A DNA stretch of 55,433 bases from Muribaculaceae bacterium (GTDB taxonomy: Bacteria > Bacteroidota > Bacteroidia > Bacteroidales > Muribaculaceae), in contig JAGATX010000008.1 of assembly GCA_017621055.1 (NCBI GenBank), positions 1-55,433 on the forward strand, in the 5' to 3' direction. Below, in pieces: positions 1 to 17,813 of this stretch (position 1 is the stretch's first letter; each line of letters begins with the position of its first letter). A program made the translations under genes and the position numbers. The notes beneath the pieces were generated by a model. That model searched no databases, was not told the DNA's origin, and saw nothing but the letters and a program-made list of their open reading frames with translations.

Positions 1-141
1 AACTCGTTCAACATCCTCTACGGTAGCGGAATTGAGTTGAGTCTCCTTGATTTCGGTACAAGTACCGGAGATTGTGCTGAGTTCTTCGGCGATATTGCCG
101 AGATAGCTATCGGCAGTATTGTCAAAATTATCGTTATTCAT
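1..141 (-). CDS. Partial hypothetical protein of the mobilization cluster (N-terminal 47 residues)
   Basis: An open frame starts with ATG at 141 (MNNDNFDNTADSYLGNIAEE) and runs off the left edge with no stop. It begins 22 bases after the relaxase stop on the same strand, so it is probably co-transcribed as a third mobilization-cluster gene. The visible part is acidic and polar, with no signal peptide or membrane segment. I do not recognise the family. Similar positions in Bacteroides mobilizable elements hold accessory transfer or hypothetical proteins, which is context and not proof. Confidence 0.55.
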   Translation of the reverse strand, partial: MNNDNFDNTADSYLGNIAEELSTISGTCTEIKETQLNSATVEDVERV

Positions 142-163
142 ATTTTTCGTTTTTAGGTGAACA

Positions 164-1132
164 TTACAGACGAATGCCTTTCTTTTTGCGCCGCTGCATC
201 TCACGGATGAATTCCTCTTCTTGCGGGTCGAAGCCGGGACCGATATTTACAATATTTCCAAGTCCACCAGCCATGTCAGCAGCAATTTCAGCTACGGAGT
301 CTGCAGTCTTAGCCGCGATATTCTGGATTGTTTTTACAGGACGAAGCTGTGGTTTAGGCGCTGCTGATGGGATTTGAGTACGAGCTTTTTTGTTCCTGTC
401 AATGGCCTCGCATATAGTTTTATAAGAGCATTTCCCGTCACGGTCAATTTGAGAAGCCTTGAATCTTCGACCGTCTTTTGTATAGGATAGGCCCTCAACC
501 TCTGTAGTGCCACGCTTGAACTTCTTCCTCACGTTAATGCCGCTTTGTGCAAGTTGCCGTTGGAATGCAATCCAGTCTTTTGCCGTTCTTTTAGCCGCTT
601 GAACTGCAAGATAAATTTCCTGACGGGTCTTACTGCCGCCTCTTAGCCGTTCAGTTTTCACTTTCTCCTTACCGTTACCAAAAGTCAAACCGTATTTCTT
701 TTTCAGTGCTTTGCAGACCTCTTTGTTGCGTAATCTCTCGTTGCTGTCGCTGATACATTTACCGTCATTATCGACCCGGTTATATACAATGTGACAGTGC
801 GGATGCTCTTTGTCAAGGTGCCGTGTGATAATGTATTGCGTGTTCACAATACCCATATTTACCAGATATTCTTGCGCCAACATGACCATTGCATCATCAG
901 AAAGCCGTGCGGAATCTTCCGGTGAATAGGACAATGAAATATGTCCTACCCATTTTTCTACACGTTTATTCATTTGCCTCTGACACTCGAATCCTGCGAT
1001 TATTGATTTCGAGGAATCATCCATAACGTCTTCGGAAAAGAGAAGCTTGGCTTCTTTGGTTGACTCATTTTCGGCAAGAGCATATTCGACACATTTTGCG
1101 AAATTGCTGCCGCTACTAATCTTTCCAATCAT
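164..1132 (-). CDS. Relaxase/mobilization nuclease (MobP/VirD2-like)
   Basis: 322 aa. Relaxases nick oriT and stay bound to the 5' end of the transferred strand during conjugation. The metal-binding three-histidine motif is visible around residues 105-114 (RHLDKEHPHCHIVYNRV, H105, H110, H112, H114), followed by the NRVDNDGK continuation typical of Bacteroides relaxases. The N-terminus (MIGKISSGSNFAKCVEYAL) is also typical; a catalytic tyrosine would be expected in the first ~20 residues and Y17 is the candidate. The start overlaps the upstream mobC-like gene by 17 bases, so the two are coupled. Size is in the normal range for small Bacteroidetes mobilizable elements, and the C-terminus is basic (RRKKK). 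Confidence 0.92.
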   Translation of the reverse strand: MIGKISSGSNFAKCVEYALAENESTKEAKLLFSEDVMDDSSKSIIAGFECQRQMNKRVEKWVGHISLSYSPEDSARLSDDAMVMLAQEYLVNMGIVNTQYIITRHLDKEHPHCHIVYNRVDNDGKCISDSNERLRNKEVCKALKKKYGLTFGNGKEKVKTERLRGGSKTRQEIYLAVQAAKRTAKDWIAFQRQLAQSGINVRKKFKRGTTEVEGLSYTKDGRRFKASQIDRDGKCSYKTICEAIDRNKKARTQIPSAAPKPQLRPVKTIQNIAAKTADSVAEIAADMAGGLGNIVNIGPGFDPQEEEFIREMQRRKKKGIRL

Positions 1133-1478
1133 GCGACAGGCGGTAGTAAAGTGCTTTTATATTCTTGCAAAGTGACTCAACTTCCCACTTTACAAGTTTG
1201 AAACCGGCTTCATTGGCTCGTTTGGCAAGCTGGTTGAGATTGTTTGCCATGCTACCAATCTGACGGAGGATGACCATGTCATCAGGTTTTGCGATGGCTT
1301 TTATGGTGGTGTTCAGAAGGGTTCGACGGCAATAATCGGATAACTTTCTACCGGATTCGTTGGCTTTGGCAAGGGTCGTGGCATACTGGTCGTCATTCAA
1401 CCTCACGCTTACGACATGGTGCTTTTTCTGTTTTATTACTGTCCCTGCAAAGGCGGACTTTCTTGTAGAATTTCTCAT
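1116..1478 (-). CDS. MobC-like relaxosome accessory protein
   Basis: 120 aa, basic N-terminus, then a stretch (VSVRLNDDQYATTLAKANES) that fits the beta-strand and first helix of a ribbon-helix-helix DNA-binding fold, as in plasmid mobilization relaxosome proteins. Such proteins bind oriT beside the nick site and help the relaxase open the strands. The last 17 bases overlap the relaxase start. The candidate oriT palindromes lie immediately upstream (1532-1674), where autoregulation and relaxosome assembly would be expected. The family call is by pattern and context; the start at 1478 is the only ATG that keeps the whole RHH region with a short basic leader. Confidence 0.82.
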   Translation of the reverse strand: MRNSTRKSAFAGTVIKQKKHHVVSVRLNDDQYATTLAKANESGRKLSDYCRRTLLNTTIKAIAKPDDMVILRQIGSMANNLNQLAKRANEAGFKLVKWEVESLCKNIKALYYRLSHDWKD

Positions 1479-1531
1479 AATTATGTGTTTTATAGTTTCT
1501 AAATGTGACCATCGGGAACGGACTCCACACT

Positions 1532-1610
1532 CCCGGTTTTTGGAGGGAGCAAGGCAGGAAATGTTTACATTGCCACAACCTTGCTATCCCTCCAAAAATA
1601 ATTTTCCGGG
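1532..1610. repeat. Candidate oriT: long interrupted inverted repeat
   Basis: Arm 1537-1554 (TTTTTGGAGGGAGCAAGG) is matched by 1579-1598 as its reverse complement with one 2-base insertion, around a 24-base spacer. Outside these, CCCGG (1532-1536) pairs with CCGGG (1606-1610). The structure sits directly upstream of the mobC-relaxase pair in the 200-base gap, where oriT usually lies in mobilizable elements. It has no clear U-tract on the mob-gene strand that would make it an ordinary terminator. The nick site cannot be named from sequence alone. Confidence 0.55.
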
Positions 1611-1646
1611 ATAACGGCTTCGTCGATGGCTACGCCACTTTTCTCT

Positions 1647-1674
1647 ATAATCGGTAAGGTGATTTACCGATTAT
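1647..1674. repeat. Perfect 11-bp inverted repeat downstream of the DUF3408-like gene
   Basis: Arms 1647-1657 (ATAATCGGTAA) and 1664-1674 pair perfectly around a 6-base loop. It lies just after the stop of the minus-strand gene ending at 1679, so it may terminate that transcript, although the U-rich side (TTTTCTC) follows it on the plus strand. It could equally be part of the adjacent oriT region. Confidence 0.5.
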
Positions 1675-1678
1675 TTTC

Positions 1679-2080
1679 TCAGAGCTTGCGCCAGACTTCA
1701 TGGTCGGAAGCGTAGTCCTCCATATGCTGACGAAGAACTGAATCGATGAAGCCGGAAACTGTTGTGTCGATGTCTCCGAGTCTACGAACCATCAGGGCGA
1801 TGCGGTCATATAGCTCACGGCTGATGTTGGTCTGCTTGCGGTCGGTAAGTGTCTTCGATGAAAGGTAAGTCGCCTTATATTCCTCGAAGTCGAGTCTGCG
1901 CTGTCGGATGCCGACACGCTGCTGCTTCGGCTCGGCTGTTGAAGGCAGAGATGCCGATGCAGTTGATTCTACGGTTGATTTTTCGCCTTGGCTGATGATG
2001 CGGTCTTCAACATTTTGATTGAAGATGTTGTCAGCCTTTTCTGTCGGCTGAGTTTCTTTGAGTACTGGTTTTGTTGCCAT
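1679..2080 (-). CDS. DUF3408-like mobile-element protein (putative RHH DNA-binding)
   Basis: 133 aa. The first ~60 residues are polar and low in complexity, and the last ~70 hold the recognisable part, ending in a segment like GFIDSVLRQHMEDY. That arrangement resembles the DUF3408 family found in Bacteroides conjugative and mobilizable elements, where the C-terminus is predicted to form a ribbon-helix-helix-like fold. The gene starts 3 bases after the primase stop on the same strand, so it is in one operon with primase and the RepA-like gene. A role in partition or transfer regulation is inference. Confidence 0.6.
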   Translation of the reverse strand: MATKPVLKETQPTEKADNIFNQNVEDRIISQGEKSTVESTASASLPSTAEPKQQRVGIRQRRLDFEEYKATYLSSKTLTDRKQTNISRELYDRIALMVRRLGDIDTTVSGFIDSVLRQHMEDYASDHEVWRKL

Positions 2081-2083
2081 AAC

Positions 2084-2956
2084 TTATATTTTTTGTTGAT
2101 TAAAAATTTTGTTGGTTAGGTACTCGTTGAGGTCTTTGAACTCGGAGTAGAGTGTGGAGCGGTCGATTACGGTTGAGCCATATATGGCTGTCAATTCGGC
2201 GAATGCTGTTTGTCCGGCATTGTCGTTGTCAAGATAGCAGTTAATGGCGGTATAGCCTTTGAGATAAGGCACAGCCTTGTTGACATTAACAACCGAGTTG
2301 AGTATGATTGCATCGGCTCCACTGATGATGTCGAGTGTGAGTGCCGAGAGATAATCAATGAATCCCTCGAACATGGCACACTCTGTTGACGGCCCGTCTC
2401 TCGCCCACGGCAGATATGAGATGTCCTTGCGTCCGCGGCAACCTTTGAAATATCTGTTGCGCAGTTCCCAGCCTCCGCTGACATTCTCAAATGCCACGGC
2501 AAAATACGACTTGCCGTTGACGCTGTAATGAGTCTCTTTGCATTTCGCATTGGCGATGTATGCCGGAATACCACGTTCTTGGAGGTATGCGACAAGTGCG
2601 CGGTGTTCCAGTGGCATGACTTCAAACTGTCCCACACTCGGTGCAGAGTGTCGCTGGGGATAAGAGGAAGCGACTGTCTGCACCGATGGTACCGGACAAC
2701 TGTCAGCGATGCAATGCATGAGATAGCGCAGGTCTGTTGACTGCCATATCTCGGCTGCAAGGTCAATGATGTTGCCACCTTTGCCAAGTCCGAAGTCATA
2801 CCAGCAGTTGAGCGATGTCTCGACCTTGAACGATGGCGTATGCTCCTGTCGTAACGGCGATCTGTACCAGAGTTTGTCTCCACACCGTCTGGCCGGCTCA
2901 TGCCCGAGTCGGGACATGAAGGTGGCTAAAGGGATAGTTTTTATCTCTTTTAACAT
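2084..2956 (-). CDS. CHC2 zinc-finger/Toprim DNA primase of the element
   Basis: 290 aa. The N-terminal ~70 residues match the DnaG-type zinc-binding domain of mobile-element primases (LWYRSPLRQEHTPSFKV, then GKGGNIIDLA). A Toprim domain follows at about residues 190-270, with the acidic motifs EGFIDYLSAL (E197) and LDNDNAGQ (D243, D245) that bind the metal ions. It probably primes replication of the element's single-stranded transfer intermediate, as prmN1 does in NBU1. It is shorter than chromosomal DnaG and lacks the helicase-binding C-terminus. It lies 79 bases after the RepA-like gene stop, on the same strand. Confidence 0.85.
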   Translation of the reverse strand: MLKEIKTIPLATFMSRLGHEPARRCGDKLWYRSPLRQEHTPSFKVETSLNCWYDFGLGKGGNIIDLAAEIWQSTDLRYLMHCIADSCPVPSVQTVASSYPQRHSAPSVGQFEVMPLEHRALVAYLQERGIPAYIANAKCKETHYSVNGKSYFAVAFENVSGGWELRNRYFKGCRGRKDISYLPWARDGPSTECAMFEGFIDYLSALTLDIISGADAIILNSVVNVNKAVPYLKGYTAINCYLDNDNAGQTAFAELTAIYGSTVIDRSTLYSEFKDLNEYLTNKIFNQQKI

Positions 2957-3035
2957 GGTGGTAAAAATGTTTAGGGGGGGGATAGTTCAGGTTCGGCTCA
3001 CATATATACACACCGTACCGAACTAAACTTGATTA

Positions 3036-4067
3036 TTAGTAGAAGTCGCGGTTGAACTGATACACTCCGTTCTCCTTGACGATTATCCGCTTGTTCATCA
3101 GGAAGGTCTTCAATTTGGTGACCTTTCCGTCGCCATACGGAAATCCGCAAGATGCGTATGCCGCCTTGATTTTATCCTCACAGTTCTGACAGCCCTTGAT
3201 GGCTCCGTCGGCGAAGGCGAGTTCAAGAGCTTCGCGGTGTTGGTCGGGTGACAGTTCGTTATACGAGAATACCTGTAGCTTTGATGCCTTACCGAAAGTA
3301 TGGTTCTCCTCAATCTCCGGCAACCCATAGTCGTTGACTCTGAAAGCAAACGGTGCAAAGTCCATAGCCCTGATACATGATGCCGACACCTCAGTCACTT
3401 CATCATCGATCGTGCTTTTGGAAACCTGCAAGACAGTCTCGGCTTTATTGTTAAGTTCAGTGCCGACATGACCGCGCACGTTGTCATCGCTCTTGTTGAG
3501 ATGGAGGACGGTATGGATATGTATCTGATACTTGTCCGTCCATTCCATCAGCTTGTTTATGAGCCTTGATGATTCGGTGGCGTTGTTGATGTCAAACATC
3601 AGGTCGCGTATGCCGTCGATGATTACCAGTCCGACATTCGGTGTGGTAGCTATCGCCCTATCTATAATCTCCAATCGCATATCCGGGACATGTGCCCGTA
3701 GCTGGGCAAAGATAAGATTATCGGGATGGCGGTCGAGAGGAAGACCGGCAAGCAGCAATGCTCGGCGTATCACCTTCTGGCAGTGATATGGACTTTGCTC
3801 GGTATCGAAGTAGAGGACTGTCCGCTTGTTGTCTGGAAATTCAGCAACGTATCTCAGCACCTCTCCATTCATCAATGCCGCCGCTACGATGGCACTCACA
3901 TTGAAGTTTTTTTTGCTTTTCGCTTTTCCGGTTGATGCCGAGAAGTTGCCGAGGGTGCCGATTACGGAACCGTTGCAAAAGAGAACTTCAGGAGCCACGG
4001 TGATTTCATCAGTCACTTTGATTTGCGAGGCTTGCCAAAGTTGTTCAATGAGATTTGTATCATTCAT
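3036..4067 (-). CDS. RepA-like AAA ATPase (replicative helicase type)
   Basis: 343 aa from the ATG at 4067. An upstream in-frame extension to 4187 exists, but the start at 4067 gives an ATGA overlap with the preceding HTH gene, a clear coupling signal. A Walker A-like segment lies at residues ~40-52 (GNFSASTGKAKSKKN), followed by a Walker B hydrophobic strand (VGLVIIDGIRD) and a conserved LHLNKSDDNVRGHVGTELN segment typical of RepA/DnaB-type ATPases on Bacteroides mobile elements. It probably drives element replication with the primase downstream. The P-loop is slightly divergent, as in the AAA_25 group. Confidence 0.8.
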   Translation of the reverse strand: MNDTNLIEQLWQASQIKVTDEITVAPEVLFCNGSVIGTLGNFSASTGKAKSKKNFNVSAIVAAALMNGEVLRYVAEFPDNKRTVLYFDTEQSPYHCQKVIRRALLLAGLPLDRHPDNLIFAQLRAHVPDMRLEIIDRAIATTPNVGLVIIDGIRDLMFDINNATESSRLINKLMEWTDKYQIHIHTVLHLNKSDDNVRGHVGTELNNKAETVLQVSKSTIDDEVTEVSASCIRAMDFAPFAFRVNDYGLPEIEENHTFGKASKLQVFSYNELSPDQHREALELAFADGAIKGCQNCEDKIKAAYASCGFPYGDGKVTKLKTFLMNKRIIVKENGVYQFNRDFY

Positions 4068-4375
4068 ACCAATCCTCTTTTGATGATGAGCTGTTCTACA
4101 TCGGCCTGGCGATAGCTTACCTTTCGACCTATTCTTACGGGAATCAGAGTCTTTGATTGTTCCCAGTTCCAGAGTGTGGCGGAGCATACACCGAATTTCT
4201 CCATTACTTCCTTCTTCGAGAGGAGGGTTTCTTTAGCGGCACTTACTATCTGAGGGCATATTTCGGCTTTGTATTTGCCAATAAGTGTATCTGCAAAGTC
4301 TACCAGATCTTGAGGTTTTATATGGAGGGTGAGATCCGTGGCACCACTCTCGACCAAAGACATTATGTTAATCAT
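4064..4375 (-). CDS. Excisionase-type helix-turn-helix protein
   Basis: 103 aa. The C-terminal half is a MerR/excisionase-like DNA-binding domain: LLSKKEVMEKFGVCSATLWN followed by IPVRIGRKVSYRQADVEQLI. Bacteroides mobile elements usually carry one or two such proteins, which control excision or the replication operon. Its stop overlaps the RepA-like start (ATGA). The start codon lies inside a short palindrome, ATTATG (4362-4367) and CATAAT (4373-4378), that could serve autoregulation. The upstream 1.3 kb is non-coding, so this is probably the first gene of the rep operon. Confidence 0.8.
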   Translation of the reverse strand: MINIMSLVESGATDLTLHIKPQDLVDFADTLIGKYKAEICPQIVSAAKETLLSKKEVMEKFGVCSATLWNWEQSKTLIPVRIGRKVSYRQADVEQLIIKRGLV

Positions 4376-5678
4376 AATATTTCTTGTTCCGCCGGAGGAT
4401 GGAAGGCATGGAGCGATGGTGGATTTAGGTCATCCCATACCTTTCGTCGCGATTGACGTGGATTAGTGGTCTCTCCGATTTGAAACAGGCATGGCAATGG
4501 CTTACTCGACACGGATGCGGTCAAGGCAAATGATATGACAATATCAAATTCGGAAGTGGGAAGTGGCCATTAAAACGATATACATTCCGTGGGCTCTTTG
4601 GCTCTCCCAAAGCCTCAAGCATTACTTGGAACAAAAATATACGGCTTCTTCTTTGCCAAAGGAAGAAGGCTGGCGCTTTACCCTGCGCGGGTCATGAATA
4701 GTCGGTCATCAGTCTGCGGCCTCCGGATGCCGCAAACATTCTGACCTTTTGTTGGTCGCAGTGAAGCCGGATTATAAATCCATTTCTTCCTGGTTTTAAT
4801 CGACAAACATACCGCCAAGTGAGATTGTTTCGCCACTCAATATCGGTTTCCCGATATTTCCGAAATGTTGCTCAACATTTCCCAACTTTTTTATGTCACG
4901 CGATTTTCCAATGAGAATAATTGCATTCTCGGATTGTTTGCCAATCTATCCTTATAACGACCTAATTGTGATTTTGTTCACGCAAATATCTGATATAAAG
5001 ATAGTTGTCTGATTTTGTCCGACTTTTGTCCAGAGTAAAATCGAACCTTACAACAAGATTATCAGATACGATAATACCTAAAATCGGGCAAATGTTAAAA
5101 ATGCAAATGTCCGATATTTTTTTTCGGTGAGATAGACTCTTTGACCATGATACTGACGGATACAACTCCATTGTTATCATTTAGCCTCTGAATTCCGGTG
5201 TCGGCATCTATGGTAACGCCAACATCGTCGGACTGCTCCAAAACAGTATTCAGAGACTGTCAATCTCAGTAATCTTGATCTGATTGACCTGCATTTGATA
5301 TTGCAACATCGGTAATATGCAGATAGTTTCCACCAAATCAGACACTTCCCCAACATGCCCCACACTTTCCCCAACATGTCCCAACAAATTTTTGGTGTCT
5401 GAACCATCAAGTATAATCAAGTGTTAGCGGAATCTTCAGATATAGACCCTATACTGGATAACGCAAAAAGCATTAACGAGACATATGTCTTAGCTAACAC
5501 TTATCAGTCGAATATCCATTCCAACAGAATCTCAGTTCAAGTAATCAACGCGAAACATCTTTTGAGGTACTTGAACAACAAAATTCCCGACCGCCACGTC
5601 ACATCGGCGCAGTTGTCGGGGCATGATAATAAGAATTGGATTATTAGTCTCATATCATTGCTAACAATCTTATAATTT
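4376..5678. other. 1.3 kb non-coding region of the element
   Basis: No convincing gene is seen. Open frames here (for example 5177-5410 minus and 5421-5675 plus) have no recognisable domain, and one is built mainly from the repeats at 5346-5378. The region holds several small hairpins, among them TGCGG/CCGCA near 4715-4735 and ATTATC/GATAAT around 5057-5074. Position between the rep operon and the DUF4209 cargo would suit a replication origin, promoters in both directions or an unlisted small RNA. None of these is proven. Confidence 0.5.
5346..5378. repeat. Iteron-like direct repeats
   Basis: TTCCCCAACATG occurs at 5346-5357 and again at 5367-5378, exactly 21 bases apart, each preceded by CAC or CACT and followed by YCCC. 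A related run (GTTGCTCAACATTTCCCAAC) lies near 4867-4886. A spacing of two helical turns is typical of iterons bound by replication initiators, and a RepA-like gene lies about 1 kb away. Only two full copies are present. Confidence 0.4.
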
Positions 5679-7379
5679 TTATTTTAGCAAAATCGCAGTA
5701 AGTATCAATGAGTGGAAAACAATATCTGCATATGGGAATGAGAAATACGATATTGGAGCCATACCATGCATTATATCATTGCGAAGATTAAGACCATGAC
5801 TGTCTGTGAAAACAGCCATAAGATGGTATGCGAGATCTCCATTTTCTATCTCCACTATGCACTTTTTACGCAAAACTCCTTCAAAAGTTATAAAACTATA
5901 TCCTCCGTTAATATTTTTGCTGCTATATGTACTTTCGCCCTTAATCGCTACATAATTACGGATAGCACCTTCTATTTGAGGTATGATTAAATGCATAAAC
6001 TGTATGTAGTCATTCGCATAATACGCATCTAATGCCTTTTCTATCATAGGTAAATTTCGAGGGATGAACGCTGGACAATGGCCAATAATATCCATAGCCG
6101 TTTCCTTGGCTATTACATTATCTTCAATGTTTTTGAGTAAAGATGGATGATGTACTCTCGCCATTATTGGAGCAAAAGTCCGGAAAAATTCAACGGCATC
6201 TTTATCATCAGAAGTCTGTCCTAGCGTAGTTGGTCTACCTGCTTGATCATAGGTAATAGTTGTTATAAACCCTAAGATAGAGTTTGTTTTCTGTTGTACA
6301 GCATTGGACTCATCGTCTTTTTTGTGATGCCAATATGCGCCTACAAATTTAAATAGTCGTTCTCTTAAGGTCCCTGTAGTTAATTCTTTGTTAGATTTTT
6401 CAATGAGTTGAACTACATCTTCACCTAAAGGTATTTCTATTGGCTTCAGGCTATTCACTACTTCTGGCCCTATTTTGGCAATTTCAACTGAGATACGTTC
6501 CTGATCTTCCTTTGATGATAGTGTGAAATAACGCTGATTTATGTAGTGTAAAAAAATCTGAGTACGCATTGGACCTAGGACATCTGTCATACTTATGGTC
6601 TTAGTTTCAAGCTGTCTTAGTATATTGAGAGACTTCTCCCTGTTCTTTACACCATAATAGTCGACCAAAACTTCTGCACAATCTTTTAGATTAGAATAAT
6701 TGTCTCCTTTGTATAGTCTGTGGTACCGATCAGTAACGTTCTGCTCTATTCGAGTCTTCTCGTCATCTGTAAAAACTTTTGGGTGTTCTCTTATTGCATC
6801 TACAATTTGAGAATATAATCCTGGAGTATCATCTGTAGAATATTTAGCATCATAATTGAAATAAGCAGTTTTAACCTTTTCGATATAAATATTTTGCTTA
6901 GTAAATATAGCAACTTTCAAGGCTCTATTTAAATGCAAAAAACCGTCATATGAGTGTTCAAAAACATCATTTTCCACCGCTGCAATAATAGTGTCGATGT
7001 AATCAAATCTCTCCTGACCGAATGCGTTTTCTCCAACAATAGGTCTAAATTCAATTTGAAGTCCGAGATAACGCAGTTTAAGCAATGGATTAGATGTTTT
7101 GTTAGCTCTTTCTCTCCAATAATCTAATGCTTCTTTAGAGACCATTGACTTGTGAGGAAACTCAAAATCCGTTCCATCCTTTCTTTTACCACTCATTTTG
7201 GGACCATAGTATGCACCGGTATAATGATCAATTGAAAAAGCCAATGCAAGTTTTTCAAATTCCAAAACCTTTCTTTGTTCGGGAGTCGTATCCTTAGACT
7301 CTCGAAGATTCATTTCTAATTCAGTGAAGGAAGTCTTACTCTCTGGGAACTTGTCCAACTCTTCTATGTAGTTTTCCAT
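5679..7379 (-). CDS. DUF4209 family protein with C-terminal HEPN-like RNxxxHG motif
   Basis: 566 aa, no signal peptide, mostly alpha-helical by composition. The C-terminus carries R533-N-D-I-M-H538-G, which fits the RNxxxHG signature of the DUF4209 family and also the Rx4-6H motif of HEPN ribonucleases. HEPN proteins cut RNA in toxin-antitoxin, abortive-infection and other defence systems, so a defence or addiction role is plausible, but the molecular function of DUF4209 is not known to me. No MNT-type antitoxin or partner gene is adjacent. The gene is clearly more AT-rich than the chromosome and sits between the element's rep region and the tRNA boundary, as element cargo does. The start at 7379 is the first ATG. 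Confidence 0.75.
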   Translation of the reverse strand: MENYIEELDKFPESKTSFTELEMNLRESKDTTPEQRKVLEFEKLALAFSIDHYTGAYYGPKMSGKRKDGTDFEFPHKSMVSKEALDYWRERANKTSNPLLKLRYLGLQIEFRPIVGENAFGQERFDYIDTIIAAVENDVFEHSYDGFLHLNRALKVAIFTKQNIYIEKVKTAYFNYDAKYSTDDTPGLYSQIVDAIREHPKVFTDDEKTRIEQNVTDRYHRLYKGDNYSNLKDCAEVLVDYYGVKNREKSLNILRQLETKTISMTDVLGPMRTQIFLHYINQRYFTLSSKEDQERISVEIAKIGPEVVNSLKPIEIPLGEDVVQLIEKSNKELTTGTLRERLFKFVGAYWHHKKDDESNAVQQKTNSILGFITTITYDQAGRPTTLGQTSDDKDAVEFFRTFAPIMARVHHPSLLKNIEDNVIAKETAMDIIGHCPAFIPRNLPMIEKALDAYYANDYIQFMHLIIPQIEGAIRNYVAIKGESTYSSKNINGGYSFITFEGVLRKKCIVEIENGDLAYHLMAVFTDSHGLNLRNDIMHGMAPISYFSFPYADIVFHSLILTAILLK

Positions 7380-7539
7380 ATCTTTATAAAAATGACCATT
7401 ATCGGCAAAGCGCTTTGCTAATAAAAGTTAAAGAATCTAATTTCGGTTTGTTGATGTTACGCCATCCTGATTTATTTCGGTTGAAATCGGGGGTGCGCGG
7501 AGGTTGGTTGACACCGCGTTGACACGGACTGAAACTAAA

Positions 7540-7574
7540 AATCGCAAGTGATTGAAATCTAATCACTTGCGATT
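7540..7574 (-). terminator. Rho-independent terminator after tRNA-Leu
   Basis: A perfect 14-bp stem (arms 7540-7553 and 7561-7574, AATCGCAAGTGATT and its complement) with a 7-base loop, followed on the minus strand by a T run. It lies 8 bases past the mature tRNA 3' end and would stop the tRNA transcript before the mobile element. Confidence 0.85.
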
Positions 7575-7582
7575 AATTGGGG

Positions 7583-7663
7583 TGCCCAGAACAGGACTCG
7601 AACCTGCACGCCTCGCAGCACTCGCACCTGAAACGAGCGCGTCTACCATTCCGCCACCTGGGC
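7583..7663 (-). tRNA. tRNA-Leu (anticodon CAG)
   Basis: Reading the minus strand from 7663: a 7-bp acceptor stem (GCCCAGG with UCUGGGC, one G-U pair), D arm with GGUAGACGC, anticodon stem CUCGU/GCGAG around loop UUCAGGU giving anticodon CAG, a variable arm longer than in most tRNAs (class II, as for leucine), and a T arm with GGUUCGAGUCC. The discriminator base is A, as leucine tRNAs require. CCA is not encoded. About 81 nt. Confidence 0.95.
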
Positions 7664-7673
7664 TTTTGCGCTG

Positions 7674-7705
7674 CAAAGTTACGGCGTTTTTTTTATTTTG
7701 CCAAA
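7674..7705 (-). promoter_or_regulatory. Bacteroidetes promoter of tRNA-Leu
   Basis: On the minus strand, TTTG (7702-7705) is followed after 20 bases by TAACTTTG (7674-7681). Both boxes match the Bacteroidetes sigma consensus (TTTG, 19-21 bases, TAnnTTTG). The tRNA starts 10 bases downstream. Confidence 0.8.
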
Positions 7706-7774
7706 TTTTTTTTGATGTTCGGGGCGTTTTTTGTGGATGTTTTTGGTTTTTTGGCTGTTTTGTCGAGCGGGCTC

Positions 7775-8158
7775 TCAGATGGAGAGGATGTTGCGGGTTA
7801 TCCACCAGATGATGTACAGGGCGATGTATGCGAATCCGGCGCGCGGGGTGAGGATGTGGAGGCTGATGGCGCGGCCTACGCGGTTTTTGAGGAGTGATGC
7901 TGCGAGTGCGAGGAGGAAGAAGGGGACGGCTACGACGAGGAAGAGGTTGTATCGGATGGCGTCGGCTATGTTTCCGTGGAGTGCGGCGTGGAGTGCGCGC
8001 TGTGCGCCGCATGAGGGGCAGTCGTAGCCTGTGAGCATTTTTATCGGGCAGCGGGGGAATATGTTGCTCTGCTCGGGGTTATTGAAAAAGTAAACCGCCG
8101 CTGCCGCGAGGGCAATGGCGGTTACTGTTATTGTTATGATTGTGCGGCGACGCGTCAT
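7775..8158 (-). CDS. DUF2752 membrane protein
   Basis: 127 aa from ATG at 8158. Motif GYDCPSCGAQRALHAALHG is the DUF2752 signature (GxxCPxCGxxRA). Membrane segments flank it: one near the N-terminus (TITVTAIALAAAAVYFF), one after the motif (YNLFLVVAVPFFLLALAASL) and one at the C-terminus (YIALYIIWWITRNILSI). The function of the family is unknown; the paired cysteines suggest metal binding or a disulfide. Its start overlaps the stop of the CD225-like gene by one base (TGATG), so the two are translated together. The pairing is common in Bacteroidetes and suggests a shared membrane role. Confidence 0.85.
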   Translation of the reverse strand: MTRRRTIITITVTAIALAAAAVYFFNNPEQSNIFPRCPIKMLTGYDCPSCGAQRALHAALHGNIADAIRYNLFLVVAVPFFLLALAASLLKNRVGRAISLHILTPRAGFAYIALYIIWWITRNILSI

Positions 8159-8955
8159 CAGAGGGCGGCGAGGAGTCCGGAAGCCATAATGAAGATGAAG
8201 TACAGTAGTCCGGCTAAGAGTCCGCTGCCGGCGGCTATTATGCCCCATAGTTTTGCCTTTTTGGAGGCGTCTTCAGCACCGGCAAAGTCACCGGCTGCCC
8301 ACTTGGAGTCTACTTGGGTTGCGAAAATTATCGACACGACGCCGAGGGGGATGCAGCAGAGGACGGTGGAGCATATTGCGAGCCATAGCCACGAGTCCGG
8401 TTTTGTCTGTCCGGCTGCGGGGTTGGGGAGTCCGGTGGAGGGCTGGACGGGCTGCCCGAATCCCGGCTGGGCGGGACGTTGGCCGAATGTGCTTTGTGCG
8501 GGGCGCTGCTGGAATGCCTGGGGCTGCTGGCCGAAAGCGGGTCGCTGCTGGCCGAAGGGTTGCTGCTGGCCGAATGGGCCTTGTGCGGGCTGTTGTGCGG
8601 CGGGGCGCTGCTGGAATGCCTGGGGCTGCTGCTGGCCGAAAGCGGGTTGCTGCTGACCGAATGCGCCTTGTGCGGGCTGCTGTGCGGCGGGGCGCTGCTG
8701 GAAGGTCTGGGGCTGTTGCTGGCCGAATGCTGCCTGTGCGGGCTGCTGTGCAGGTTTGGGCTGGATTGGCTGTGTGGAAGCTGCTGCGGGGGCGAAGATG
8801 GCGCAGAGTTCGGTGACTTCGCCGGCTTTCTGCCAGTTGCTCATTCCTTCGCACCACACAAAGGTGTCGCGCGTCACGCCGCGGTTCACGAGTTCTTCAC
8901 CGGGGAAGGGGCCTGCCTGTTTGCCGTCTTTGCCAATTATGTGGTAATTTTTCAT
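8158..8955 (-). CDS. GYF-like (DUF4339) and CD225/dispanin-like membrane protein with Gln/Pro-rich linker
   Basis: 265 aa. The start at 8955 (MKNYHIIGKDGKQAGPF) was chosen over 8979 because it begins directly with the GYF_2/DUF4339 module (residues ~1-50, ending NWQKAGEV), a peptide-binding fold. Residues ~55-175 are a low-complexity linker of imperfect repeats (AFGQQQPQAFQQRP, AAQQPAQGAFGQQ). The C-terminus has two membrane helices (SWLWLAICSTVLCCIPLGVV and LWGIIAAGSGLLAGLLYFIF) with a short cytoplasmic-type loop between (ASKKAK), as in CD225/dispanin proteins, which influence membrane curvature. A TAnnTTTG box lies at 9080-9087 (minus). The function is not known. Confidence 0.8.
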   Translation of the reverse strand: MKNYHIIGKDGKQAGPFPGEELVNRGVTRDTFVWCEGMSNWQKAGEVTELCAIFAPAAASTQPIQPKPAQQPAQAAFGQQQPQTFQQRPAAQQPAQGAFGQQQPAFGQQQPQAFQQRPAAQQPAQGPFGQQQPFGQQRPAFGQQPQAFQQRPAQSTFGQRPAQPGFGQPVQPSTGLPNPAAGQTKPDSWLWLAICSTVLCCIPLGVVSIIFATQVDSKWAAGDFAGAEDASKKAKLWGIIAAGSGLLAGLLYFIFIMASGLLAAL

Positions 8956-9137
8956 AAGGGTGATTATATCTCCTGGCACTGAGGGGAGACTGGGAGGATA
9001 TGATGTTCAGGAAAACGCAGCGCCGAGCCGGTTTGTGTTTCCGGCGCGTTCCCCGGTTTTGTTATGCTGTTATTTTTTACAAAATTACAGACAAAAGGAG
9101 AGAAAATGCGCCGCCGCGATGTTAAATTATGCTAAAA

Positions 9138-9716
9138 TCAGCCAATTTTTATTCCGCCGAAGCCCATGAATGCCATTGCGAGGATTCCTGCGGTGATCAG
9201 TGCTATGGGCACTCCGCGCATGGGCGCGGGTACTTCGGCGAGGTCGAGGCGCATTCGTATACCGGCGAATATTGCTATCGCGAGGGTGAATCCGAGGGCT
9301 GTGGCTATGGCGTAGACGATCGACGGTATGAATTCCATGTTGTTCTGGCAGGCGAGGATTGCCACTCCGAGCACTGCGCAGTTTGTGGTTATCAGGGGGA
9401 GGTAAACGCCGAGGGCGGCATATAGGCCGGGCGATATTTTTCGGAGCATTATTTCGACCATCTGGACGAGGATGGCGATGACGAGGATGAATGCGATGGT
9501 CTGGATGTACTGCAGTCCGAGGGGCGCGAGGATGTATGTCTGCAGGAGCCATGTTGCGGCTGTCGCCACTGCCATTACGAAGCATACGGCGAGTCCCATC
9601 CCGACGGCGCTGTCTATGTTTTTCGATACGCCGATAAAAGGGCAGATGCCGAGAAACCGGGCAAAGACGACGTTGTCGGCGAGGATGGCGGTGAATATTA
9701 TGGCGAGGTATTCCAT
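9138..9716 (-). CDS. rnfA: Rnf electron transport complex subunit A
   Basis: 192 aa integral membrane protein with six predicted helices, the usual RnfA/NqrE size. Typical segments are NVVFARFLGICPFIGVSKN near the start and NCAVLGVAI and MPAPMRGVPIALI-like regions toward the end. RnfA and RnfE form the inverted pair of membrane subunits that hold a [2Fe-2S] cluster and conduct electrons across the membrane. It is the last gene of the operon, 18 bases after rnfE. No clear hairpin terminator was found in the ~40 bases downstream. Confidence 0.95.
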   Translation of the reverse strand: MEYLAIIFTAILADNVVFARFLGICPFIGVSKNIDSAVGMGLAVCFVMAVATAATWLLQTYILAPLGLQYIQTIAFILVIAILVQMVEIMLRKISPGLYAALGVYLPLITTNCAVLGVAILACQNNMEFIPSIVYAIATALGFTLAIAIFAGIRMRLDLAEVPAPMRGVPIALITAGILAMAFMGFGGIKIG

Positions 9717-9734
9717 ATTGGGGCGCGACAGGCT

Positions 9735-10319
9735 TTATTTTTTGAACATTCTGTTGTATAGGGCGATAAGGAGTCCGAGGGCGATGAATGCGCCCGGGGC
9801 AAGGACAAAGACGAGGGCGCCGTAGTCAGGGCTGTAGAGCTGATATCCGAATACGGCGCCGGTGCCGGCTATTTCGCGCACGCAGCCAAGGAGGGTTAGG
9901 GCGGCGGTGAAGCCGAGGCCTACGCCGAGGCCGTCGGCGAGGGAGAGGAGCACGTTGTTTCGTGAGGCGAAGGCTTCGGCTCGGCCGAGCAGGATGCAGT
10001 TCACTACGATGAGGGGGATGAATATGCCGAGGGCGCCGTATAGACCGGGGAGAAAGGCCTGCATCAGCATCTGCAGGACGGTGACGAACGAGGCTATGAC
10101 GACGATAAACGCTGGAATCCGCACTTTGTCGGGCACGAGGTTGCGGATTGCCGATATGGCGGCGTTGGAGAGGACGAGGACAAAGAGTGTTGCCACGCCC
10201 ATGCCGAGGCCTGTTATGGCGGAGGATGTGGTGCCGAGGGTCGGGCACATGCCGAGGATGAGGACGAAGGTTGGGTTTCGGCGGATAAGTCCGTCGGCGA
10301 TTATCTCAGCGGCTTTCAT
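9735..10319 (-). CDS. rnfE: Rnf electron transport complex subunit E
   Basis: 194 aa with six membrane segments, homologous to RnfA and NqrD. Recognisable motifs are LIRRNPTFVLILGMCPTLG near the N-terminus and VNCILLGRAEAFASRNN in the middle. The cysteine in GMCPTLG is the counterpart of the conserved cluster-binding cysteine. It overlaps rnfG by four bases (ATGA), so the two are translationally coupled. With RnfA, RnfD and RnfG it forms the membrane part of the ferredoxin:NAD+ oxidoreductase. Confidence 0.95.
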   Translation of the reverse strand: MKAAEIIADGLIRRNPTFVLILGMCPTLGTTSSAITGLGMGVATLFVLVLSNAAISAIRNLVPDKVRIPAFIVVIASFVTVLQMLMQAFLPGLYGALGIFIPLIVVNCILLGRAEAFASRNNVLLSLADGLGVGLGFTAALTLLGCVREIAGTGAVFGYQLYSPDYGALVFVLAPGAFIALGLLIALYNRMFKK

Positions 10320-10873
10320 CGGGCGGTTGTCATGAAGAAGTTGTACGAATTTCTGGCGCGGTTGAGGGCGTCGACGAAGGCTCGCGAGGTTATGGTCGCG
10401 CCGGTGATTGCGTCGATGTCTCCGCCGTCGGCCTTTACGGCGAGGTTTGCGCGGGAGCCACGCACGTCGGCGCCGTCAGTGCGGAACCACCCGTCGGCTT
10501 TGGCGCCGAGGCCGGGGGTCTCGTTGGTCTGAGTCACGCGGTAGTCGACGAGCGTGCCGTCGGCGTCGAAACCGCACAGCACTTCGATGCGGCCGCTGAA
10601 GGCGGCGTCGCTGTACGATGCCACGGCCACTCCGACGAGGGCTCCGTCGCGGTATGCGGGATAGACGGTGGTGCCGTCGGCGCCGGGCACGACATCGGTG
10701 GCGGGGTCGGAGTCGAAGGGCGGAAGAACGTCGTTGATGGCCGTTGCCAGGGCCTGACGGCGTGCATCGGCGATGGGTTCCTCGGTAATGAGGTTTACGG
10801 TGCCGAGGATGGCGCCGGCGCCGAGGGTGAGCACGCCCAGAGAGATGAGCATTGTTCTGACGGTCGATTTCAT
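10316..10873 (-). CDS. rnfG: Rnf electron transport complex subunit G
   Basis: 185 aa from ATG at 10873 (MKSTVRTMLISLGVLTLGAG). One N-terminal membrane anchor and an FMN-binding domain whose covalent flavin attachment motif is visible at residues 157-162 (T-G-A-T-I-T). RnfG passes electrons on the outer face of the membrane. The ATGA overlap with rnfD supports this start over a longer in-frame extension. The family's usual length is about 180-220 aa. Confidence 0.93.
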   Translation of the reverse strand: MKSTVRTMLISLGVLTLGAGAILGTVNLITEEPIADARRQALATAINDVLPPFDSDPATDVVPGADGTTVYPAYRDGALVGVAVASYSDAAFSGRIEVLCGFDADGTLVDYRVTQTNETPGLGAKADGWFRTDGADVRGSRANLAVKADGGDIDAITGATITSRAFVDALNRARNSYNFFMTTAR

Positions 10874-11808
10874 GTGCGTGCGGGTTTGGGAGCGAGGCGC
10901 CGCGGGCGCAGGTAGCGGTCGAGCAGCGGCGTGACGCCGTTCATGATGAGGATGGCGAACGACATTCCCTCGGGGTATGCGCCCCAGCGGCGGATGACGG
11001 CGGTGATGATGCCTATGGCGAGGCCGTATGCAATCATTGCGCGCGTAGTCATGGGTGATGTCACATAGTCGGTAGCCATGAAGATGGCGCCGAGCAGGAG
11101 GCCGCCGCTGATGATGTCGAGACCCGGGGGAAAACCGGCGAGGAGGTCGACGGCGGTGAGGCCGGCTATGATGCTCAGGGGTATCCATATCCTGATGACC
11201 TTCATGGCGAGGAGGTAGATGCCTCCGGCAATGAGGGCGAGGGCGCTGACCTCGCCCATGGAGCCGGGAATGTTGCCGGCGAGCATGTCGCCCACGTTGT
11301 AGGCGAACTCGGGCGAGCCGTTTTTGGCGAGGGTTAGGAATGTGGCGCCGGTAGCGCCGTCGGGTGCGCCGGGGAGCGGCCATGTGGTCATTGCCACGGG
11401 GAAGGATATGAGCAGGAACACGCGGCCCACCAGCGCAGGGTTAAAAATGTTGCAGCCGAGGCCTCCGAATGCCATTTTTGCAATACCGATTGCGACGATG
11501 GCGCCCACGGCCACCATCCACAGGGGCAGCGACGCCGGCAGGTTGAGGGCGAGGAGCACGCCGGTGAGGAGTGCCGAGCAATCGGCCAGATGTGATTTCT
11601 GCTTGAGCAGCCGGGTTGTTATGAGCCACTCTGTGGCAAGGCACGCGGCGACGGCGACGGCCATCACTGCGGCGGCGTGCCACCCGAAGTAAAATATGGC
11701 GCACGCCACAGCGGGGACGAGGGCTATGAGGACGTGGAGCATGGCGTGGCCGGTTGTACGGCGGCGGTGCACATGCGGCGCGGGCGAGAATATCATTTTC
11801 TTATCCAT
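10870..11808 (-). CDS. rnfD: Rnf electron transport complex subunit D
   Basis: 312 aa from ATG at 11808 (MDKKMIFSPAPHVHRRRTTG), which gives the family's usual N-terminus (SPxPH followed by the first helix). An ATG at 11826 is also possible and would overlap rnfC. About nine membrane segments are predicted. The FMN attachment motif is in DGATGATFLTLA. RnfD and RnfG hold the covalent flavins. The C-terminal half contains GILLGAIFMATDYVTSPMT-like membrane segments, typical of RnfD/NqrB. Confidence 0.93.
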   Translation of the reverse strand: MDKKMIFSPAPHVHRRRTTGHAMLHVLIALVPAVACAIFYFGWHAAAVMAVAVAACLATEWLITTRLLKQKSHLADCSALLTGVLLALNLPASLPLWMVAVGAIVAIGIAKMAFGGLGCNIFNPALVGRVFLLISFPVAMTTWPLPGAPDGATGATFLTLAKNGSPEFAYNVGDMLAGNIPGSMGEVSALALIAGGIYLLAMKVIRIWIPLSIIAGLTAVDLLAGFPPGLDIISGGLLLGAIFMATDYVTSPMTTRAMIAYGLAIGIITAVIRRWGAYPEGMSFAILIMNGVTPLLDRYLRPRRLAPKPART

Positions 11809-11810
11809 GG

Positions 11811-13127
11811 TCAACGTTGGCGGCATCGGTTTTTTGCACGGCGGATATAGTCGAGGAGGGGCCGTCTGGAGGGGCACGACCAGCTGCAGCTGCCGCACTC
11901 GATGCAGTCGGCCACATCGGCGGCGCGGGCGTCGTCCCATCGGCGCAGCCGGCCGTAGGTCTCGAGGAGATAGGGCTCGAGACCCATAGGGCAGGCATCA
12001 ACGCAGGCGCCGCAGCGTATGCAGGGCATTAAGGGCTGTCGGCGAGCGTCGGTGAGGACGGTTATCCCCGAAGTTCCCTTTGTGACCGGGGCGTCGAGGG
12101 TTACGGTGCATTTACCCATCATCGGGCCGCCCAAAATAATTTTAGTATCGGCATCCGGTGGCAGGGTGAAGGGAATTTCGGCGAAAGGAGTGCCTATGGC
12201 GGCGCGGTAGTTTCGGCGTTGGTCGGCGGGGATGTCGCCGCTGATGCTTATCACACGCTCTATCAGCGGCATGTCGGTAGAAACGGCCTGCCAGACGGCG
12301 AAAGCCGTAGCCACGTTGTGCACTATCACGCCGACAGCCGAGGGAATGGCACCCGAGGGCACTTTGCGGCCTGAAACGGCGTCGATAAGCTGGCGTTCGC
12401 CGCCTTGGGGGTATTTTGTGCGCAAAATCTTGACTTCCACGCCGGCAGCGGATACAGCATGTGCGGCAAGTGCCGCGGCGGCCTCCGGTTTATTGTCTTC
12501 AATGGCTATTACGGCGCGGTCTATTGCCGTGGCTTTCATCATCATCTGCACGCCGGCAATGATTTTGGCGGGATAAGCCCGCATCAGAGCGTCGTCGCAG
12601 GTTAGGAACGGCTCGCATTCGCAGCCGTTGATAATGAGGAGGTCCACTTTGTCGCGCGGTGCCAGTTTTATGGCCGAGGGGAAGGTCGCGCCACCCATAC
12701 CCACAATTCCTGCGCGGGCCACGCGCCGTTTTATTGTGTCGGCGTCGACGTCCGGTGTGGCCATGCTGTCGATAGCGAGCCAGTAGCGCATACGTTCGGT
12801 CTCGTCGGCGTCGTGGGTGGCCTCGTCGGCGGTGATGACTATGCAGGGACGGCGGCGGCCGTCGGGCATCAGGGCATCTTCCAAGGCTGCCACGGTTCCG
12901 CTCACGGGCGCGTGGACGGCGGCCGACATTGCATATGGCGCTTCGGCGATCAGCTGACCGCGGCGCACGCTGTCGCCCTTGGCGACTATGGGGCGGGCCG
13001 GCGCGCCGATGTGCTGCTGCAGAGGAACCACGGCACGTCGGGGCAGCGGCAGCGCTTCGATGCCGGAGAGCGTGGTCTTGCAGGCTGCGGGGTGGATACC
13101 GCCTTTACTGAATGTGCTGTGGATCAT
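11811..13127 (-). CDS. rnfC: Rnf electron transport complex subunit C
   Basis: 438 aa soluble subunit that carries the NADH/FMN site. The N-terminus KGGIHPAACK is the usual RnfC start. A Rossmann-type flavin/NAD region has GIVGMGGATFPSAIKL and INGCECEPFLTCDD. Two [4Fe-4S] binding motifs end the protein: CIRCGACVDACPMGLEP and CIECGSCSWSCPSRRP. Its first 23 bases lie inside the end of rnfB. It is shorter than E. coli RsxC because it lacks that protein's repetitive C-terminal extension. Confidence 0.95.
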   Translation of the reverse strand: MIHSTFSKGGIHPAACKTTLSGIEALPLPRRAVVPLQQHIGAPARPIVAKGDSVRRGQLIAEAPYAMSAAVHAPVSGTVAALEDALMPDGRRRPCIVITADEATHDADETERMRYWLAIDSMATPDVDADTIKRRVARAGIVGMGGATFPSAIKLAPRDKVDLLIINGCECEPFLTCDDALMRAYPAKIIAGVQMMMKATAIDRAVIAIEDNKPEAAAALAAHAVSAAGVEVKILRTKYPQGGERQLIDAVSGRKVPSGAIPSAVGVIVHNVATAFAVWQAVSTDMPLIERVISISGDIPADQRRNYRAAIGTPFAEIPFTLPPDADTKIILGGPMMGKCTVTLDAPVTKGTSGITVLTDARRQPLMPCIRCGACVDACPMGLEPYLLETYGRLRRWDDARAADVADCIECGSCSWSCPSRRPLLDYIRRAKNRCRQR

Positions 13128-13953: not shown

Positions 13954-14002
13954 GGCTGGCTTATTATGGTGTTTTTGTTGGTTATAGTGATTGGATGAAG
14001 AG

Positions 14003-17557: not shown

Positions 17558-17618
17558 TATATTGTTGCGTTTTAATACATTAAGTGAGTGGGCGAGCCTT
17601 GCGCAGGCTCTCAGGCTG

Positions 17619-17626
17619 CAAAGTTA
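17619..17626 (-). promoter_or_regulatory. Putative -7 box of ychF
   Basis: TAACTTTG on the minus strand, 61 bases upstream of the ychF start, with a TTG 22 bases further upstream (17649-17651). This matches the Bacteroidetes consensus in the -7 part; the spacing is slightly long. Confidence 0.55.
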
Positions 17627-17752
17627 CGAAATTTGCGGCATAAAACGGCAAGTCACGGCGCACATCCGGCCCTATTACGCGGGAGAATTGTGGAGAATTG
17701 GCATATTTGCCTGCTTTTGTGTTAAATAATGCAAAATATTTGGCTTTGGATA

Positions 17753-17793: not shown

Positions 17794-17813
17794 CACCGTC
17801 AAAACGAAGAGCT

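What the first reader, a model, noticed from the sequence alone, without database searches (positions are those of the whole stretch)
5679..7379. DUF4209/HEPN-like protein as cargo of a mobilizable element
The 566-aa protein ends in R533-N-D-I-M-H538-G, which is both the DUF4209 signature and a HEPN Rx4-6H motif. It lies at the edge of a mobile element beside a tRNA, in AT-rich DNA, with no household neighbours. Such a cargo slot often carries anti-phage or addiction genes. A lone HEPN RNase without MNT antitoxin would have to control itself or act only on infection. I know of no worked-out function for DUF4209.
Basis: partly seen in the sequence, partly recalled or inferred. Interest (0 to 1): 0.75.

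Follow-up and report, generated by a model that had tools for sequence, protein, structure and literature searches.

The report
Mobile cargo gene: DUF4209/HEPN defence RNase
A small mobile DNA element carries, in an exchangeable cargo slot, one gene for a probable RNA-cutting enzyme of a family that often lies among anti-virus genes in bacteria and has a human relative, and for which I found no experimental test.

Summary
The gene at 5679-7379 (minus strand, 566 aa) matches Pfam DUF4209 above its cut-off and carries R533-N-D-I-M-H538. It lies beside tRNA-Leu in AT-rich DNA at one end of a mobilizable element. The HEPN reading is not new: DUF4209 is the C6orf70/ERMARD branch of HEPN (published 2013), and PADLOC's defence candidate PDC-S39 matches it. 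Added here: (1) in 28 homologues found by profile or BLAST, only E470, R533 and H538 are invariant, the HEPN Ex3[KR] and Rx4H residues; (2) other elements share the slot borders but hold four unrelated cargoes or, once, none; sister elements carry a type IIG restriction enzyme and Gabija genes elsewhere; (3) relatives lie in P2-like phages at the published A-Q defence hotspot (gene in 54 of 5,426 E. coli genomes; place seen in 2) and near or inside type I restriction operons (5 of 19 loci, controls 0 of 22), once as HsdM-HsdS-DUF4209-HsdR; (4) no partner gene recurs. Best explanation: a one-gene, infection-triggered RNase effector with a helical sensor half. A new member of a known candidate kind.

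The parts
5679..7379 (-). DUF4209/HEPN protein gene, 566 aa (matches PADLOC PDC-S39)
   Evidence: ORF; PF13910 E 2.5e-8; PDC-S39 E 1.8e-22
5712..5975 (-). DUF4209 domain, residues 469-556 (predicted HEPN RNase domain)
   Evidence: profile comparison with Abi_C
5766..5783 (-). Rx4H motif, codons of R533-N-D-I-M-H538
   Evidence: R and H in 28 of 28 profile/BLAST-found homologues
5958..5972 (-). Ex3[KR] motif, codons of E470-G-A-I-R474
   Evidence: E 28 of 28; R 27 of 28, K in the other; motif defined in PMC3710099
6390..7379 (-). N-terminal region (about residues 1-330), weakly helical-repeat-like; possible sensor half
   Evidence: family profile positions about 124-350 match designed helical proteins (best E 1.5e-4, 2.6e-4) and kinesin light chain TPRs (E 0.27 and up)
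5626..7410 (.). cargo slot: the stretch that differs between related elements; holds only the DUF4209 gene here
5586..5621 (-). stem-loop with T run downstream of the gene, conserved at the slot border; probable terminator
   Evidence: sequence and borders; folds (131-nt stretch, z -1.85)
7540..7574 (-). 14-bp inverted repeat, terminator-like, between tRNA and cargo, at the element end
   Evidence: sequence seen in L138 and L139, alignment spans it in L171 and L175
7581..7663 (-). tRNA-Leu (CAG), integration target
   Evidence: same tRNA beside sister element L139
7581..7596 (+). att core (tRNA 3' end, 16 bp); second copy at the far end of sister elements in G090 and G097
   Evidence: L172:280, L173:3539; single copy in own assembly
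4064..4375 (-). HTH-like protein of the element backbone (name recalled; no NCBIfam cut-off reached)
3036..4187 (-). backbone helicase/ATPase-like protein (name recalled; no NCBIfam match); 87-88% identical relatives in three other genomes
2084..2956 (-). DnaG-type primase-like protein
   Evidence: TIGR01391 E 8e-9, below cut-off
1679..2080 (-). DUF3408 protein
1116..1478 (-). MbpA/MobA-like mobilization protein
   Evidence: below cut-off
164..1132 (-). relaxase-like protein (MobB/TraI-MobP/MbpB matches)
   Evidence: E 2.8e-37, below cut-off

Best explanation
The gene encodes a stand-alone, normally silent RNase effector of the C6orf70/DUF4209 branch of the HEPN superfamily, carried as exchangeable defence cargo by a tRNA-Leu-integrating mobilizable element. 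Shown here: exclusive conservation of the HEPN catalytic residues in the family and their presence in the window gene; a precise swappable slot that holds this one gene; defence-gene and phage-hotspot neighbourhoods of relatives; no recurring partner gene. Inferred: the helical N-terminal half (about 330 residues) holds the C-terminal HEPN domain inactive and senses infection; when triggered, paired HEPN domains form a composite metal-independent active site and cut cellular RNA (tRNA, mRNA or rRNA), stopping growth or translation before the phage is made. In relatives inside type I restriction operons the trigger may be failure of the restriction enzyme, as with PrrC; in the window gene it must be sensed by the protein itself or involve the unseen part of the element.
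For: Only E470, R533 and H538 are identical in all 28 profile/BLAST-found homologues, also when gaps are left out (519 columns with 20 or more letters); R474 27 of 28. They are the Rx4-6H and Ex3[KR] residues of the HEPN active site as defined in PMC3710099. PDC-S39 matches 30 of 30 aligned members. PADLOC models matched at E<=1e-15: 152+191 for 198 neighbour genes of 19 DUF4209 loci, 6+40 for 220 control genes (models, not genes). Type I R-M subunit within 6.5 kb: 5 of 19 loci, controls 0 of 22, Fisher p 0.016. HsdM-HsdS-DUF4209-HsdR with 4-bp overlap in L098. P2-like phages hold a DUF4209 gene between gpA and gpQ, the hotspot tested by Rousset et al.. Slot with five unrelated cargoes counting DUF4209, and one empty version. 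Sister elements hold type IIG R-M, GajA and GajB elsewhere. Sporadic: in 198 family genomes only its own; 13 of 396 class genomes.
Against: No experiment. No fold prediction. The PDB profile search listed no HEPN protein. Profile comparison beat 100 of 100 shuffles with Abi_C but not with Ymh, another HEPN family (24 of 100 shuffles as good). The four slot proteins of three other elements tested with PADLOC match no defence family, so the slot is not proven a defence slot, and DUF4209 was seen in it only once. The neighbour controls are random stretches of the same genomes, not other accessory islands, so part of the excess may only mean 'genomic island'. Plasmid neighbours are mixed: R-M or abortive-infection genes in 3 of 9 stretches. 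Some members have a tight same-strand neighbour (26 ORFs in 23 of 65 loci, some of them overlapping ORF calls) and may need a second protein. Profile searches themselves favour the conserved residues. The window protein is divergent (highest identity 27% over 559 columns) on a long branch.
Confidence: 0.66

Rival explanations
1. Addiction (toxin-antitoxin) gene: the HEPN protein is a toxin that keeps the element in the cell, neutralised by an antitoxin.
For: HEPN toxins of MNT-HEPN pairs exist (PMC3710099); the gene is on a mobile element; in L083 and L088 a gene of about 165 aa follows the DUF4209 gene by 1-2 bp.
Against: The slot holds one gene only; no neighbour family recurs in more than 4 of 65 loci, and the two families that reach 4 are the P2 phage genes gpA and gpQ. 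The protein is 566 aa with a large N-terminal half, unlike short MNT-HEPN toxins (recalled).
Confidence: 0.12
2. PrrC-like restriction-gated RNase: the family is a second-line effector that a restriction-modification complex holds inactive and that fires when a phage disables restriction.
For: L098 HsdM-HsdS-DUF4209-HsdR on one strand; L086 DUF4209 between HsdM and HsdR on one strand; PrrC is a HEPN RNase embedded with hsdMSR and held inactive by it (PMC3710099 passage).
Against: 14 of 19 loci have no type I R-M subunit within 6.5 kb by the phmmer count; no ABC ATPase as in PrrC; none visible in the window, whose element end is missing.
Confidence: 0.3
3. A regulatory or RNA-processing RNase that is not about phages, as proposed for the eukaryotic C6orf70/ERMARD proteins.
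For: The same HEPN family reaches back to the eukaryotic ancestor and was proposed to degrade RNA at the ER membrane.
Against: Patchy distribution (13 of 396 genomes of the class), mobile and phage contexts, R-M neighbours.
Confidence: 0.12
4. Non-catalytic relict or passenger gene with no function.
For: Split or stop-bearing relatives exist: L016, L066, L071 and G228, G617, G775.
Against: The window gene is one open frame with all four signature residues, although it is far from the rest of the family in sequence, which suggests long selection.
Confidence: 0.05

Closest known systems
C6orf70/ERMARD family of the HEPN superfamily (Pfam DUF4209, PF13910)
   Same: Pfam match above cut-off; Rx4H and Ex3R; helical-looking N-terminal half; relatives in R-M operons
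   Different: No transmembrane helix was looked for here; the window copy is element cargo without R-M genes in sight
PADLOC PDC-S39 (PDC profiles are 'guilt by embedding' candidates, Payne et al. preprint 2024, as cited in PMC12988326)
   Same: Both PADLOC profiles match at E 1.8e-22 and 5.3e-14; relatives embedded in type I R-M operons
   Different: An unvalidated candidate; I found nothing on its mechanism
PrrC (anticodon nuclease of the prr locus)
   Same: HEPN RNase placed with hsdMSR; proposed second line of defence
   Different: PrrC has an N-terminal ABC ATPase, DUF4209 proteins show none; the window gene has no R-M neighbour in the contig part of the element
Abi_C (PF14355) abortive-infection proteins (HEPN status recalled)
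   Same: C-terminal domain aligns over 121 columns with the RN..HG motif in register
   Different: 17% identity in that alignment; different N-terminal halves
MNT-HEPN toxin-antitoxin pairs
   Same: HEPN RNase motif
   Different: No MNT gene found beside it; protein much longer (recalled)

Membership tests
HEPN superfamily | Rx4-6H motif with polar residue after R | tested here: met
   R533-N-D-I-M-H538; R and H 28 of 28, next residue N 23 or H 5 in profile/BLAST-found homologues. The further 36 pattern-found rows were selected by this motif and do not count.
HEPN superfamily | upstream acidic residue in Ex3[KR] | tested here: met
   E470 28 of 28, R474 27 of 28 with K in the other; E also 36 of 36 in the pattern-found rows, of which the 4 were searched with a second pattern that contains this E, the other 32 were not
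HEPN superfamily | four-helix HEPN fold | tested here: inconclusive
   structure prediction off; hhalign with Abi_C better than 100 of 100 column shuffles, with Ymh not (24 of 100 as good); no HEPN protein listed in the PDB profile search
HEPN superfamily | metal-independent endoRNase activity | not testable with these tools
   needs purified protein
Pfam DUF4209 / C6orf70 | match over the curated cut-off | tested here: met
   34.3 bits against 22.3
Pfam DUF4209 / C6orf70 | fusion to TPR | tested here: inconclusive
   only weak helical-protein and kinesin-light-chain TPR matches; Pfam SRP_TPR_like E 0.11
PADLOC PDC-S39 | profile match | tested here: met
PADLOC PDC-S39 | anti-phage activity | not testable with these tools
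   no experiment found in the paper searches
MNT-HEPN toxin-antitoxin | adjacent MNT nucleotidyltransferase gene | tested here: not met
   one gene in the slot; upstream is the tRNA; the 1.3 kb downstream hold only ORFs of at most 84 aa (these three were not scanned), too short for an MNT (recalled)
PrrC | N-terminal ABC ATPase | tested here: not met
   Pfam scan of the window protein and 29 relatives lists none
PrrC | placed inside a type I R-M operon | tested here: inconclusive
   met in relative L098, partly in L086 and L100; not seen in the window, whose contig begins inside the element
cargo of a mobile element | exchangeable slot with defined borders | tested here: met
   borders at window 5624-5625 and 7411-7428 in five other elements: three with the same backbone and both borders well matched (L138, L139, L171), one empty with a short right border (L137), one sharing the borders but not the backbone (L175)

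The most novel reading that the evidence does not exclude
DUF4209 proteins are a phylum-spanning class of single-protein anti-phage RNases in which a helical-repeat half both clamps and triggers a HEPN domain, working alone on mobile elements and, when captured between HsdS and HsdR, as a PrrC-like second line that fires when restriction fails; the human ERMARD protein would then descend from a bacterial antiviral RNase.
Probability: 0.3. Interest if true: 0.7.

Novelty: new member of a known kind. Interest (0 to 1): 0.45.

Why it matters
If confirmed, it would give a tested function to a HEPN family for which the paper searches made here found none. The family occurs in bacteria, on an archaeal plasmid (Natrinema) and, by the 2013 analysis, back to the last eukaryotic common ancestor, so it would also show whether a predicted human ER RNase comes from an antiviral system. 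The slot comparison gives a natural design for tests: near-identical element backbones (helicases 96-99% identical among L137, L138, L139 and L171) with different cargo.

Tried and rejected
Uncropped profiles gave P 0.014 with Abi_C and 0.5 with Ymh; cropped ones one positive (Abi_C) and one null (Ymh). One Ymh hit, L181, was left out as too short.

Close relatives of the window protein: none in 198 genomes of its family beyond itself, none in IMG/VR with the window protein alone or with A3, none in the phage records.

Second att site and integrase of the window's own element: not found in its assembly.

Conserved partner gene: none recurring. Operator palindrome GCAAAGCGCTTTGC upstream of the gene: 2 of 66 other upstream stretches hold any palindrome of 12 or more, neither the same, so not pursued.

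Tree: the window row is a long branch with no firm place; phylum labels are somewhat clustered (12 changes, least possible 9, shuffled mean 14.2, as low in 5 of 200), so transfer between phyla is not proven by it and no donor is claimed.

RNA element: only the tRNA found in 1-9000.

Literature: DUF4209 found in 1 paper, PDC-S39 in 1, DUF7380 in 0, P2-EC46 in 0, ERMARD with HEPN in 0. These searches cover open-licence PubMed Central main texts only. Seen: passages of PMC3710099, PMC9122126, PMC12988326 and PMC11878078; other papers as search listings only. The Payne preprint and Odegrip 2006 are known from citations in those passages and from recall, and the gene order of the prr locus from recall; none was read.

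Full report
OBSERVATION. The ORF 5679-7379 (minus, 566 aa) is real and reads as described, R533-N-D-I-M-H538-G. Pfam DUF4209 covers residues 469-556, 34.3 bits against a cut-off of 22.3. NCBIfam has no match at E 0.1. PADLOC's candidate PDC-S39 matches at E 1.8e-22 over residues 145-541. The window is a whole contig, C15 of a 2.03-Mb assembly in 34 contigs, and the profile finds no other DUF4209 gene in that genome.

WHAT THE PROTEIN IS. Homologues were found on plasmids (20 of 72,556 records) and in 33 stretches of named genomes; the 30 aligned rows carry ten phylum labels. The genome scan used the RN.[IV]xH pattern itself, so motif conservation in it is by construction. I therefore counted separately the homologues found by profile or BLAST. 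Of 68 loci put through the automatic gene call, 65 gave a DUF4209 ORF. Identical rows were merged (L073 and L082 are one contig). Of 72 aligned rows with the window, 7 fragments were dropped for covering under 60 of the 80 columns 465-544 (listed), leaving 28 profile/BLAST rows and 36 pattern rows. In the 28, exactly three columns are fully identical: E470, R533 and H538; the same three result when gaps are left out, over 519 columns with 20 or more letters. R474 is R in 27 and K in 1; residue 534 is N in 23 and H in 5. Four of the 28 are C-terminal pieces only, and profile searches themselves favour such residues. The HEPN paper defines the superfamily's active site as Rx4-6H with a polar residue after R, plus an upstream acidic residue in Ex3[KR] (PMC3710099 passages). 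So the family's only invariant residues are the predicted HEPN active site. That paper already lists DUF4209 as the C6orf70 family: conserved motif, bacteria and eukaryotes, fused to TPR, occurring in R-M related operons.

FOLD. A PDB profile search gave designed helical proteins and, weakly, kinesin-light-chain TPRs for profile positions about 124-350, and listed no HEPN protein. Profile-profile comparison of residues 430-566 with the Abi_C domain (4 sequences) aligned 121 columns with the RN..HG motif in register, score 24.1 against a maximum of 18.2 in 100 column shuffles. With Ymh (4 sequences and one of L018) the score was not better than shuffles (24 of 100 as good), although the motif also fell in register. 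I call the fold likely, not shown.

THE ELEMENT AND ITS SLOT. The backbone 164-4375 holds relaxase-, MobA-, DUF3408-, primase-, helicase- and HTH-like genes. Relatives of the 3036-4187 protein occur in 44 of 198 family genomes, its own included. I fetched ten element stretches and five more. In L139 a sister element lies in the same tRNA-Leu(CAG). Its far end carries the 16-bp att core (L172:280) followed by a 451-aa protein 76% identical to the Pfam-typed tyrosine integrase of L140. Alignment of the window with these stretches breaks at window 5624-5625 and resumes at 7411-7428. Between those borders lie: DUF4209 (window), a 266-aa ORF (L139), 135- and 164-aa ORFs (L138), a 219-aa ORF (L171), 323- and 359-aa ORFs (L175), or 45 bp only (L137). 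L175 shares the borders but no backbone gene; L137 has only 56 bp of the right border. The cargoes are unrelated to one another and to DUF4209 at E 1e-3, while the helicases of L137, L138, L139 and L171 are 96-99% identical to each other and 91-94% to the window's over the aligned part. The window's relaxase and MobA are only 32-39% like theirs, so the elements are mosaics. The slot is framed by a conserved stem-loop with T run downstream (5586-5621) and an inverted repeat between it and the tRNA (7540-7574). None of four slot proteins tested (L139, L171, two of L175) matches PADLOC, and three (L139, two of L138) match no Pfam family: the slot is a cargo slot; that it is a defence slot is not shown by its other contents. 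Beyond the relaxase, L171 carries a type IIG restriction-methyltransferase, a methyltransferase and GajA, and L173 (the element of L138) the same genes by 99% identity plus GajB, in two different genera. The window's own far end was not found in its assembly.

NEIGHBOURS OF THE FAMILY. Searches gave 22 other genomes with DUF4209. I fetched 20 stretches (the limit of one call; G750 and G775 left out); one (L081) gave no gene because of unread bases. For the 19 loci, 198 genes within 6.5 kb were compared with 220 genes of 22 control stretches (23 fetched, one of 315 bases dropped) from 19 genomes, 18 of them also in the test set. PADLOC models matched at E<=1e-15: 152+191 against 6+40. One protein matches many models and only 25 rows per call are shown, so these are not gene counts. 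By a direct phmmer count, a type I R-M subunit lies near DUF4209 in 5 of 19 loci and in 0 of 22 controls, p 0.016. The controls are random stretches, not other islands. In L098 the order on one strand is HsdM, HsdS, DUF4209, HsdR, the last two overlapping by 4 bp. PrrC, a HEPN RNase, is likewise embedded with hsdMSR and held inactive by it (PMC3710099 passage); its exact place between hsdS and hsdR is recalled. Of nine plasmid stretches opened, DUF4209 overlaps a DNA methyltransferase gene in Chlorohelix and lies near restriction or abortive-infection genes in Natrinema and Aeromonas. Mesorhizobium and Sinorhizobium show toxin-antitoxin genes, Massilia a TIGR02391 gene, Klebsiella a Hok/Gef gene 10 kb away and Pantoea none of these, and the Pseudoalteromonas stretch is not annotated.

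PHAGES. The window protein has no match in 50,697 phage records; the Klebsiella relative has 2, both P2-like. In one of them DUF4209 lies between gpA and gpQ; the other record is only 2.2 kb. Three of the four IMG/VR loci (near-identical DUF4209 genes) show the same flanking genes. The gene occurs in 54 of 5,426 E. coli genomes; in the 2 I opened it is again between replication endonuclease and portal. This is the locus where Rousset et al. tested systems and found several protective (PMC9122126 passages); the term DUF4209 does not occur in that main text. A second E. coli type occurs in 151 of 5,426 genomes (146 over at least 80% of the query), in a Qin-like prophage (name recalled) in the 2 opened.

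PARTNERS. In 65 loci with a DUF4209 gene (not all independent), the most frequent neighbour families within three genes reach 4 loci, both P2 phage genes; no other reaches more than 3. 26 ORFs in 23 loci were counted as same-strand neighbours within 30 bp, some of them overlapping ORF calls rather than real genes. The family thus has no fixed partner, though a few members may have one.

VERDICT. A member of a known predicted HEPN RNase family and of a listed but, as far as found, untested defence candidate, here caught as single cargo in a well-defined swappable slot. Most likely a one-gene infection-triggered RNase. What is new is supporting evidence, not a new kind.

Noticed in passing
window 7405-7419: 14-bp perfect palindrome GCAAAGCGCTTTGC a short way upstream of the DUF4209 start, at the slot border; not shared with 66 other upstream stretches. 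Could be an operator.
   Followed up: partly
L171:2-6799, L173:5221-11998, L145:6510-11118: Sister mobilizable elements carry a type IIG R-M, a methyltransferase and Gabija genes as a 99%-identical block in different genera (L145: the first two genes at 79-82%).
   Followed up: partly
L139:9217-10017, L138:9047-9899, L171:13091-13750, L175:8710-10803: Six other slot ORFs in four elements: the three of L139 and L138 have no Pfam match, the four of L139, L171 and L175 no PADLOC match. Candidate unknown cargo genes.
   Followed up: partly
L083:1179-1673, L088:3882-4388: In one DUF4209 subfamily a gene of about 165 aa follows the DUF4209 gene by 1-2 bp: possible dedicated partner.
   Followed up: no
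L049:10001-11737 and 16847-18652: Maribellus sp. carries two different DUF4209 genes 5 kb apart.
   Followed up: no
L100:9829-12267: 812-aa SEC-C motif protein 9 bp upstream of DUF4209 in a type I R-M region.
   Followed up: no
window 9138-14064: Genes on the far side of the tRNA look like an Rnf complex operon (recognised by eye, not scanned).
   Followed up: no
G000:C8:85000-103000 (L146): A second element with a 66% identical helicase in the same genome, followed by an open frame of 3177 aa that runs to the end of the fetched stretch.
   Followed up: no
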